Assembly (NCBI GenBank): GCA_903900845.1 | Contig: CAIUOU010000009.1 | Coordinates: forward strand, 1 to 33,811 | Source of the DNA: an uncultured Opitutia bacterium | Lineage (GTDB): Bacteria > Verrucomicrobiota > Verrucomicrobiia > Opitutales > Opitutaceae | Direction of reading: 5' to 3' | DNA: 33,811 bases | Shown here: positions 17,461 to 18,844 of the stretch, piece after piece | Layout of the letters: each line of letters begins with the position of its first letter | How positions within the stretch are numbered: the first letter of the stretch is position 1 | Translations under genes and position numbers: made by a program | The notes under the pieces: model-generated | What the model was told of the DNA's origin: nothing | What the model saw: the letters and a program-made list of their open reading frames with translations, nothing else | The model's database searches: none

Positions 17461-17942
17461 ACACACGAACCGGCCTTTGGATCGATCAGGGACGCGCGAT
17501 CATCGTCGCCCTCAACGGCGGCAACGAAAAGGTGAGGTCCCTCACCTCGCAGGTCACGAGCCAGCCCCGGCGCGCGAGTGACACGCCCGCCGGGAAGCGG
17601 TTCGACGCCCACCATATTCCGGCCGACGCCACCCGGACCCGCACCCATGCGCGCGACCTCAAGGCGTTCTTCGACCGGATCTTCCGCGAGCTTCCGGGCG
17701 CGGGCGAACTGCTTCTCCTCGGCCCCGGCCGCGCCAAGACTGACTTTCGCAAGCACCTGCAGGCGGCCGGCTGGGCCGGACGGGTGCTGGCGGTCGAGTC
17801 CGCCGACAAGATGAGCGACCGGCAGTTCGCCGCGCTGGTCCGCGAATTCTTCCAGCGACCCTTGGAGTCTCCGGCGGACGCCTACCGCCCCTGGTACACA
17901 TCGGCCAGCGCGAGCAAAATACTCTCGAGCTCCTTGAGGTAG
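17457..17942 (+). CDS. Small eRF1-like (baeRF / 'translational machinery') protein linked to slipin
   Basis: Predicted cytoplasmic protein of 161 residues. The pattern GLWIDQGRAIIVAL near the start, HARDLKAFFDRIF, LLLLGPGRAKTDFRKHL and VESADKMSDRQFAALVREFF matches, from memory, a small bacterial family annotated as eRF1-domain or translational machinery protein; its function is unproven. The start overlaps the slipin stop (ATGA), making a three-gene coupled operon. In relatives I recall, the protein ends soon after DRQ..A..VR.F, so the last 25 or so residues (after FFQRPLE) look like an extension. This tail lies in the 61-base overlap (17882-17942) with the convergent caspase-like gene. A lost stop codon would explain this. 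The family name is moderately sure, the role is not. Confidence 0.75.
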   Translation: MNTRTGLWIDQGRAIIVALNGGNEKVRSLTSQVTSQPRRASDTPAGKRFDAHHIPADATRTRTHARDLKAFFDRIFRELPGAGELLLLGPGRAKTDFRKHLQAAGWAGRVLAVESADKMSDRQFAALVREFFQRPLESPADAYRPWYTSASASKILSSSLR

Positions 17943-18844
17943 TCGTCCGCAGGGAGCTTCTCTTTCCGCGCCCGAAGCTCGGAAAGGCGCCGCTCCAGTT
18001 CATCGCGGCGCGACCGCGCCTCGGCGGAAAGCGCCTGCTCGGCGGCGCTCCGCACGAGATGCAACTGGTGCGCCCGCGTGCCATCCGCCGAGGCGCCGTC
18101 GGCAGCGCGTTTCACCGCCAGCACGCCACGGAACCAGTCCGGCGGAGTACCCAGCCCGTCGCCGTTGTCCTCGATGAGAGGGTGCTCGGTGGCGAGGCGG
18201 CCCTCAGTCTTGTAGAACTCGGCCGTGCGGCTCGCGGCGCTGAGGAATGACTCGAGGAGCGAGATCTGACCGTCGCGATCGAGATCGCTCGCGCGAGCGG
18301 CCAGCGCCTCGGCGAAATACTTCCCGAAACGCGTGTAGTTCTGCTCATTTCCGCTGCGCGTCGCGCTGACAATGACGCGTCCCGGCGCGGCCAGCTTCGC
18401 GATGAAGGGGGCGCTCGACGACGTGGTGTGCACCACGGCCACGGGGCGATTGAAGGGCTTAAGCCATTCCGCCAACTCCGGCGCGGCGACATCCGGACCG
18501 CGCAGGTTCAGCTTGGCCTCGCGTCCGTCGAACGTGCCGTGTCCGACCAGCACGACCCACAGCTCGTCGACGCCATCCTTGGGCTCGGCCGCCAACATCT
18601 CGCGCAAGCGCTCGCGATCCACCGACGCCCCGTCGGCCTCGCGGCCAATGAGCGACAAGCGGGCCGAAGCTTCCCGGCTGGTCCGGGTCCACGCGGCTAT
18701 CTGCGCCTCGAAATCCGGCGCCAGCTCGGGATCGCCGACGGCCCCCGCCACGAGCAGGACACGCGGCCCGGTGGCAGCCGGGGTGGGCTGCGCGGCGACC
18801 ATCGCCGCCCCGAGAAAGCAAAGCAGGAAAAACACCCGGGGCAT
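17882..18844 (-). CDS. Secreted caspase/C13-fold-like protein without catalytic cysteine, EF-hand loop
   Basis: Predicted periplasmic protein, 320 residues. The start at 18844 is chosen because ATG overlaps the upstream stop (TGATG) and opens a clean signal peptide (MPRVFFLLCFLGAAMVAAQ); the longer frame lacks this. The core LWVVLVGHGTFDG (His102) followed by VAVVHTTSSSAPF recalls the His and Cys strands of C13/caspase peptidases. The Cys position is Thr/Ser (140-144), and the mature protein has no Cys at all, so it cannot be a cysteine protease. Residues 187-198, DLDRDGQISLLE, form a textbook EF-hand calcium loop, and EDNGDG further on may add another site. The C-terminus is a charged helix (SRRDELERRLSELRARKEKL). 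It is the last gene of the MoxR operon. The fold assignment is inferred from motifs. Confidence 0.8.
   Translation of the reverse strand: MPRVFFLLCFLGAAMVAAQPTPAATGPRVLLVAGAVGDPELAPDFEAQIAAWTRTSREASARLSLIGREADGASVDRERLREMLAAEPKDGVDELWVVLVGHGTFDGREAKLNLRGPDVAAPELAEWLKPFNRPVAVVHTTSSSAPFIAKLAAPGRVIVSATRSGNEQNYTRFGKYFAEALAARASDLDRDGQISLLESFLSAASRTAEFYKTEGRLATEHPLIEDNGDGLGTPPDWFRGVLAVKRAADGASADGTRAHQLHLVRSAAEQALSAEARSRRDELERRLSELRARKEKLPADDYLKELESILLALADVYQGR

What the first reader, a model, noticed from the sequence alone, without database searches (positions are those of the whole stretch)
17882..18844. Caspase/C13-like secreted protein with no cysteine and an EF-hand loop
GHG (His102) and the later strand VVHTTSSSAPF match the places of the His and Cys in caspase-like peptidases, but the Cys is replaced by Thr/Ser and the whole mature protein lacks Cys. 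A perfect DxDxDGxIxxxE loop (187-198) suggests calcium binding. A calcium-responsive pseudoprotease at the end of a MoxR operon would be a new type of adaptor; a Ser/Thr-based hydrolase is the other option.
Basis: partly seen in the sequence, partly recalled or inferred. Interest (0 to 1): 0.65.

Follow-up and report, generated by a model that had tools for sequence, protein, structure and literature searches.

The report
Dead caspase-fold protein in MoxR operon
A secreted protein folded like the proteases legumain and caspase lacks the cutting cysteine throughout its clade while keeping its histidine and two calcium-loop-like motifs, and it is encoded beside the same membrane-protein gene in every clade member examined, so it probably works as a binding part rather than as an enzyme.

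Summary
The gene is on the minus strand (17882-18844, 320 aa): His102 in GHG, no Cys in the mature protein, a complete DxDxDGxIxxxE loop at 187-198. AlphaFold (pLDDT 89.8) gives a caspase/legumain fold (4nol_A, Z 18.6, 2.5 A, 192 residues). A fragment alignment puts Ser142 on the catalytic Cys. In a 64-member clade from Verrucomicrobiota and Planctomycetota, position 142 is Ser 56, Ala 6, Pro 2, Cys 0; His102, Asp187, Asp191 and Glu198 are 64 of 64. All 64 lie beside a GATase1_like gene; in 20 genomes whose DNA further upstream I read, 19 have MoxR there, 15 the same TPR/peptidase-MA gene. Distant versions sit elsewhere in such operons, some fused to DUF3857-transglutaminase. One Planctomycete operon clade (4 members) has Cys142. 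The EF-hand-like loop also occurs in Cys-bearing relatives, so it is not special. Ser142 was lost at least six times with His and acidic residues unchanged, which speaks against a Ser hydrolase. Most likely: an exported pseudoprotease, perhaps Ca2+-stabilised, binding a peptide or partner in a MoxR-linked membrane complex. Fold, Cys absence and operon link are computed; the binding role is inferred.

The parts
17882..18844 (-). gene for the Cys-less caspase/legumain-fold protein P0001 (320 aa), last gene of the MoxR operon
   Evidence: start codon shares one base with the upstream stop codon
18788..18844 (-). probable signal peptide, residues 1-19 (holds the only Cys, C9)
   Evidence: hydrophobic N-terminus, low pLDDT at 19-22; cleavage site inferred
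18080..18772 (-). caspase/hemoglobinase-fold domain, about residues 25-255
   Evidence: aligned ranges start at 22-26 and end at 264-272
18539..18541 (-). His102 of GHG, place of the catalytic His
   Evidence: 64 of 64 in the clade; 0 changes on the tree
18419..18421 (-). Ser142, place of the catalytic Cys
   Evidence: fragment structural alignment; S 56, A 6, P 2, C 0 of 64
18251..18286 (-). EF-hand-like loop DLDRDGQISLLE, residues 187-198
   Evidence: D187, D191, E198 64 of 64; also in Cys-bearing relatives
18155..18172 (-). second acidic loop EDNGDG (DxNxDG type), residues 225-230
   Evidence: D226 and D229 64 of 64
17891..18025 (-). C-terminal helical hairpin, residues 274-318, with E284 and Y302 invariant in 64 of 64
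   Evidence: DSSP of the model
18844..21225 (-). GATase1_like membrane protein P0002, constant neighbour
   Evidence: Pfam PF07090 9.5e-11; adjacent in 64 of 64; same 23 of 273 genomes
21222..25016 (-). DUF4175-like 1264-aa protein
   Evidence: 15.7 bits, below the curated cut-off of 27.3
25013..27106 (-). BatA/VWA membrane protein
27103..28053 (-). DUF58/VWA protein
28074..29114 (-). MoxR AAA+ ATPase
29172..30131 (-). DUF4159 protein
30158..31033 (-). DUF4159 protein
31030..33630 (-). TPR protein with a Peptidase_MA domain and an HEFCH (HExxH) motif
   Evidence: motif read; homologue in 15 of 20 upstream stretches of clade members

Best explanation
P0001 is an exported, probably periplasmic, pseudoprotease of the caspase/legumain (clan CD) fold. 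The place of the catalytic Cys is Ser (sometimes Ala or Pro) throughout its clade, while the His and two acidic loops are invariant. It most likely folds with bound Ca2+ and uses the old substrate cleft to hold a peptide or a loop of a partner, as a fixed subunit next to the GATase1_like membrane protein in a MoxR/DUF58/BatA/DUF4175 complex. Shown by computation: fold, place of Ser142, absence of Cys in the clade, conservation, operon linkage. Inferred: location, Ca2+ binding, peptide binding, contact with the GATase1_like protein, action of MoxR on it.
For: Model pLDDT 89.8; legumain 4nol_A Z 18.6, rmsd 2.5, 192 aligned. A model of residues 24-143 (pLDDT 92.9) ends its alignment with residue 142 on caspase-11 254 (6kmu_G, titled mutant C254A) and residue 143 on caspase-1 286 (1sc4_A, titled C285A mutant) and caspase-3 164. 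Clade of 64: H102 64; position 142 S 56, A 6, P 2, C 0; D187, D191, E198, E220, D226, D229 each 64. Tree changes: 0 at H102 and these acidic residues, 6 at 142, median 17 per column. GATase1_like beside it in 64 of 64; P0001 and P0002 in the same 23 of 273 genomes of the order. In 45 of the 64 with a locus of 5 kb or more, DUF4175 is present in 43; in 20 genomes with DNA further upstream read, MoxR in 19, DUF4159 in 17, TPR/peptidase-MA in 15. Of 35 more distant members, 27 lie near one or more operon genes. Sequence link to C13: operon relatives L153 and L112 pass the Pfam Peptidase_C13 cut-off (28.1 and 25.2 bits, cut-off 22.8).
Against: No binding, calcium or interaction data. Ser142 is still kept in 56 of 64, more than in most columns (54 of 289 columns change less), so a role of its hydroxyl is not excluded. 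Four operon relatives have an intact His/Cys dyad, so an enzyme can work in such an operon; two of these four (L162, L163) lack the EF-like loop. Foldseek TM-scores over the whole model are low (0.38-0.47 by query length in the 50 rows shown). In one genus (G018, G037) the pair stands without DUF4175 next to it; in G018 the MoxR genes lie about 14 kb away on the other strand. P0001 itself matches no Pfam or NCBIfam family above cut-off.
Confidence: 0.6

Rival explanations
1. It is an active hydrolase with a His102/Ser142 dyad: a serine version of the caspase/legumain fold.
For: Ser142 lies on the catalytic Cys place and is Ser in 56 of 64; His102 is 64 of 64.
Against: Ser142 became Ala or Pro at least 6 times, and all 8 members without it keep GHG, D187, D191, E198, E220, D226 and D229. 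Of the 28 more distant members without Cys142, 25 keep the His although their letter at 142 varies. SERA5, a papain-fold protein with Ser for Cys, showed no activity and its Ser-to-Ala change had no phenotype (PMC4671257, abstract and passages seen).
Confidence: 0.1
2. It is only a structural, perhaps Ca2+-stabilised scaffold; the old cleft is not used, and the conserved surface and C-terminal hairpin hold the membrane complex together.
For: Acidic loops, E284 and Y302 are as invariant as the His.
Against: GHG, W96 and F147 around the old active site are also invariant or nearly so, which is more than a bare scaffold should need.
Confidence: 0.18
3. It regulates or presents substrates to an active protease of the same operon, the TPR/peptidase-MA protein at its head.
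For: That protein has an HExxH motif and a homologue stands at the head of the operon in 15 of 20 clade genomes whose upstream DNA I read.
Against: It was not found in 5 of these 20 stretches (L198, L205, L210, L214, and L211 at a contig end), whereas the GATase1_like gene is beside P0001 in 64 of 64. It lies at the far end of the operon.
Confidence: 0.12

Closest known systems
Legumain, peptidase family C13
   Same: Fold (best VIA match, Z 18.6), His in an HG motif, sequence link through operon relatives L112 and L153.
   Different: No catalytic Cys, clade-specific C-terminal hairpin, no Pfam C13 match of P0001 itself.
Pseudo-orthocaspases (PMC6426788, abstract and passages seen)
   Same: Bacterial caspase-fold proteins with Ser for Cys, presumed inactive.
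   Different: Those also have Tyr for His; here the His is invariant. Different family and gene setting.
SERA5 of Plasmodium falciparum (PMC4671257, abstract and passages seen)
   Same: Ser on the place of a catalytic Cys, non-enzymatic role shown.
   Different: Papain fold, unrelated protein.
Bat/MoxR operons (PMC3557215, passages seen)
   Same: MoxR with Bat VWA proteins; [quoted passage not shown]
   Different: No caspase-fold component in the passages that I saw.
MoxR-vWA ternary conflict systems (PMC7159879, 12 of 61 passages seen)
   Same: MoxR, vWA and sometimes caspase-like domains.
   Different: Those carry effectors of conflict systems; here a stand-alone exported protein with BatA, DUF4175 and GATase1_like. 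No PADLOC match for the nine operon proteins.

Membership tests
Clan CD peptidases (caspase/hemoglobinase fold) | fold | tested here: met
Clan CD peptidases (caspase/hemoglobinase fold) | catalytic His next to a conserved Gly (feature named in PMC4357240, passages seen) | tested here: met
   GHG 64 of 64
Clan CD peptidases (caspase/hemoglobinase fold) | catalytic Cys | tested here: not met
   Ser142 in P0001; Cys 0 of 64 in the clade
Peptidase_C13 (PF01650) | match above Pfam's gathering score | tested here: not met
   no match of P0001, weak in 1 of 28 A1 members at E 0.2; distant operon relatives L112 and L153 pass
EF-hand | 12-residue Ca2+ loop pattern | tested here: met
   DLDRDGQISLLE; loop positions 1, 5 and 12 are 64 of 64
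EF-hand | match to a Pfam EF-hand model above cut-off | tested here: not met
   EF-hand_5 9.9 bits, cut-off 25.9
EF-hand | Ca2+ binding | not testable with these tools
   needs purified protein
Pseudo-orthocaspases | His replaced by Tyr | tested here: not met
   His102 kept in 64 of 64
Serine hydrolase | nucleophile Ser kept wherever the rest of the site is kept | tested here: not met
   8 of 64 have Ala or Pro with GHG intact
Serine hydrolase | activity | not testable with these tools
   needs purified protein
MoxR/Bat operon component | constant linkage to the operon | tested here: met
   GATase1_like adjacent in 64 of 64; MoxR in 19 of 20 genomes read further upstream, in one of them on the other strand about 14 kb away

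The most novel reading that the evidence does not exclude
In the 56 Ser-bearing members the His102/Ser142 pair is a working dyad. As far as I recall this would be the first serine hydrolase of the caspase/legumain fold, placed in a MoxR-linked membrane complex where sister clades use Cys or no nucleophile at all.
Probability: 0.1. Interest if true: 0.85.

Novelty: new variant of a known kind. Interest (0 to 1): 0.58.

Why it matters
What MoxR/Bat operons do is poorly understood: for the Bat proteins of Leptospira the authors say that no specific function had been shown (PMC3557215, start of the abstract). A caspase-fold protein that is a constant part of one such operon type in two phyla, Cys-less in most lineages and Cys-bearing in one, gives a handle on what the complex binds. 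It also offers a natural series (Cys, Ser, Ala, Pro at one place, in operons of one kind) for studying how a protease turns into a binding protein. In seven searches I saw no paper that describes a caspase- or legumain-fold component of Bat-type operons (open-access library only; judged by titles, starts of abstracts and some passages; one search showed 20 of 226).

Tried and rejected
EF-hand loop as the special feature: rejected, since Cys-bearing caspase-like proteins of the phyla searched have such a loop at the same place (L065, L068; L165, L173, L187).

Register of the nucleophile by sequence alone: alignments disagreed. L063, L064 and L066 gave Ser142, L072 gave Ser142 with a gap beside it, L068, L069 and L073 gave Thr141; the others (L065, L070, L071) did not cover the place; the profile-profile match gave Ser142 but was weak (probability 8.6). 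I settled it with the fragment model, which reports only the first and last aligned residues. The Cys-bearing relatives also align with Cys at 142.

Cys avoidance in an oxidising place as the reason for the missing Cys: rejected, since only 22 of 64 clade members lack Cys over mapped positions 26-320 and C140 is present in 25 of 64. C140 as a shifted nucleophile: not conserved, absent here.

Searches mended this (15 of 20), and I raised that rival from 0.06 to 0.12 and lowered the best explanation from 0.62 to 0.6 and the scaffold rival from 0.2 to 0.18.

Solved relatives by sequence: none for P0001; three chance-level matches for the profile (best E 0.5). Pfam C13 in the own genome: none. Defence systems: no PADLOC match. 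I had no coordinates, so His-Ser and loop geometry could not be measured. Families absent from the VIA lists are not excluded.

Rows dropped: A1 holds 28 of the 32 loci (P0001 stands for L001; the truncated L023 and the distant L024-L026 left out). One search gave 104 rows; one search kept 99 after removing duplicates and L023; the tree used 94 of 99. Its support is SH-aLRT only, its root is weak, and long branches meet there, so whether the operon Cys was kept or regained is open. Four weak hits were not fetched (G463:C77; G774:C37, G839:C105 and G877:C738) and are in no count. Of the 8 members without operon neighbours, L169 lies at a contig end. In one search two near-identical members (L006, L008) were matched to one and the same larger locus, and the window's own row used a 5.4-kb locus.

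Full report
What is there. The gene lies on the minus strand, 17882-18844, and codes for 320 residues with an N-terminal hydrophobic stretch. It is the last gene of a minus-strand operon: TPR/peptidase-MA, two DUF4159, MoxR, DUF58, BatA/VWA, a DUF4175-like protein, GATase1_like, then this gene. The start codon shares one base with the stop codon of the GATase1_like gene.

Fold. P0001 matches no Pfam or NCBIfam family above cut-off and no solved chain by sequence. With 28 sequences (alignment A1) AlphaFold gave a confident model (pLDDT 89.8, pTM 0.87). Foldseek lists MALT1, GPI transamidase, metacaspase 9 and caspases (best E 1.6e-7; TM-scores by query length only 0.38-0.47 in the 50 rows shown). 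VIA-align puts legumain first (4nol_A, Z 18.6, rmsd 2.5, 192 aligned, 13% identity) and also lists metacaspases, GPI transamidase and caspases. So the fold is that of clan CD.

The nucleophile place. Sequence alignments alone left two choices, Thr141 or Ser142. I therefore predicted residues 24-143 alone (pLDDT 92.9) and aligned that model. The last aligned pair is residue 142 with caspase-11 254 (6kmu_G, titled mutant C254A) and with caspase-6 163 (3p45_A), and residue 143 with caspase-1 286 (1sc4_A is titled C285A mutant), caspase-3 164, caspase-7 187, caspase-8 361 and caspase-2 321. That 163, 186, 360 and 320 are the catalytic Cys of caspases 3 and 6, 7, 8 and 2 is recalled. Ser142 thus stands on the catalytic Cys. 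Relatives with a Cys align it at 142 as well.

Conservation. Homologues were found in 26 of 273 genomes of the order, 28 of 387 of the phylum with the profile and 46 of 343 of the phylum of the Planctomycete locus L032. After removing duplicates 99 members remained, 64 of them in one high-scoring clade, which the tree holds together (98 SH-aLRT, quick method). In the clade His102 is 64 of 64; position 142 is Ser 56, Ala 6, Pro 2, Cys 0; D187, D191, E198, E220, D226 and D229 are 64 of 64. On the tree His102 and these acidic residues change 0 times, position 142 six times, the median column 17 times; 54 of 289 columns change less often than 142. The eight members without Ser142 keep GHG and D187, D191, E198, E220, D226 and D229. 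The His is therefore kept for a reason that does not need a Ser nucleophile, which is the main argument for a pseudoenzyme and against a serine hydrolase.

The Ca2+-loop. The pattern DxDxDG.....E or a close form sits at the same place in Cys-bearing caspase-like proteins: L065 and L068, L165, L173 and L187. L165 also has the second loop (ENPLLDDNGDG). Both loops look ancestral in these proteins, though L162 and L163 lack the first one. Whether they bind Ca2+ here is not tested.

Operon. In the order, near full-length P0002 and P0001 occur in the same 23 of 273 genomes, one P0001 being cut by a contig end; P0002 also has weaker matches in 50 further genomes. In all 64 clade members a GATase1_like gene is adjacent on the same strand; the rule was an approximate distance under 700 nt. 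Forty-five of the 64 have a locus of 5 kb or more, and 43 of these also show DUF4175; BatA is seen in 26, DUF58 in 15 and MoxR in 5, since most stretches end before those genes. I therefore fetched the DNA further upstream for 20 of the clade genomes: MoxR is there in 19, DUF4159 in 17, the TPR/peptidase-MA gene in 15. The one without any is G468 (L214). In G018 the P0001-GATase1_like pair stands alone and the MoxR genes lie about 14 kb away on the other strand; G037 of the same genus also lacks DUF4175 next to the pair. This makes the GATase1_like protein the most likely direct partner.

Distant members. Of the 35 more distant members, 27 lie near one or more operon genes: 25, and L053 and L025 through the larger loci L106 and L104. 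One of the 27 (L055) has only a DUF4159 neighbour. Their places differ: 277-305 aa proteins just upstream of moxR (L109-L111); N-terminal domains of 849-910 aa proteins just upstream of moxR (L104-L107, L171, L190), of which the three scanned are transglutaminase-core proteins with DUF3857 (L104, L106, L171; DUF3857 just under cut-off in L171); after DUF4159 (L112-L114, L164, L166-L168, L170); or, as here, right after GATase1_like (L155-L158, L160, L162, L163). Of these 64 + 27 = 91 operon-linked members 87 lack Cys at 142. The four that have it (L153, L158, L162, L163) form one Planctomycete clade with GHG intact; MoxR itself was seen in the stretches of L162 and L163. Three more Cys-bearing relatives (L165, L173, L187) showed no MoxR, DUF58, BatA, DUF4175, GATase or DUF4159 gene in the stretches fetched.

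Sequence link to a known family. P0001 itself does not reach Pfam Peptidase_C13, but L112 (25.2 bits) and L153 (28.1 bits; also C14 at 21.5, cut-off 21.4) do, and both match the A1 profile strongly. P0001 is therefore best called a divergent, Cys-less relative of the C13/C14 peptidases, not a member of an active peptidase family.

Mechanism. By a simple hydropathy scan BatA has three and the GATase1_like protein two hydrophobic stretches of membrane kind, DUF58 none, and MoxR one borderline stretch at 46-64 beside its AAA domain. P0001 is likely exported and held next to the GATase1_like protein. The best reading is a subunit whose old substrate cleft, with W96, GHG and F147 kept, binds a peptide or a partner loop, while Ca2+ stiffens the loops. 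The MoxR/VWA pair would work on the complex from the other side, as proposed for other MoxR systems (PMC7159879 and PMC3557215, passages seen). Binding, location and the coupling to MoxR are inference. The TPR/peptidase-MA protein, with its HExxH motif, is a second candidate partner.

Literature. Cys or His substitutions in bacterial metacaspases are known: 84% of those surveyed have the intact dyad, and in Planctomycetes 64% (PMC3501461, passages seen). Pseudo-orthocaspases with Tyr/Ser are known (PMC6426788, abstract and passages seen). In seven searches of an open-access library I saw no paper that describes this operon component; subscription papers and database notes were not seen.

Verdict. 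The reading as a pseudoprotease is well supported, the adaptor role is plausible and untested, the calcium loop is ordinary for this kind of protein, and the serine-hydrolase reading is unlikely but not excluded.

Noticed in passing
18844-21225 (-): The GATase1_like neighbour also lacks a Cys at what looks like its nucleophile elbow: LGG-x-[Glu 49, Asp 20, Ala 2 of 71 rows]-S. So a second Cys-hydrolase fold in this operon seems to be without its Cys (that this is the elbow is recalled, not tested).
   Followed up: partly
L104-L107, L171, L190: In other lineages the same caspase-like domain is the N-terminal part of 849-910 aa proteins just upstream of moxR; the three scanned are DUF3857-transglutaminase proteins.
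   Followed up: partly
L153/L156, L158, L162, L163: Planctomycete operon members with an intact His/Cys dyad; they may be active proteases in operons of the same kind.
   Followed up: partly
31030-33630 (-): TPR protein with an HExxH-bearing Peptidase_MA domain at the head of the operon; homologue in 15 of 20 upstream stretches of clade members.
   Followed up: partly
17457-17942 (+): Convergent 161-aa ORF without a Pfam match overlaps the 3' end of the gene by 61 nt.
   Followed up: no
L172, L174, L188: Large proteins of 1410-1521 aa with a Cys-less caspase-like stretch (G-x-NRSGSF at the nucleophile place) and no operon genes found nearby; the one scanned, L172, also has PKD and beta-propeller domains.
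   Followed up: no
L180: A second set of MoxR-DUF58-BatA-GATase-DUF4175 genes follows directly downstream of the clade member in G939.
   Followed up: no
alignment position 140: Cys two residues before the nucleophile place in 25 of 64 clade members, unexplained.
   Followed up: no
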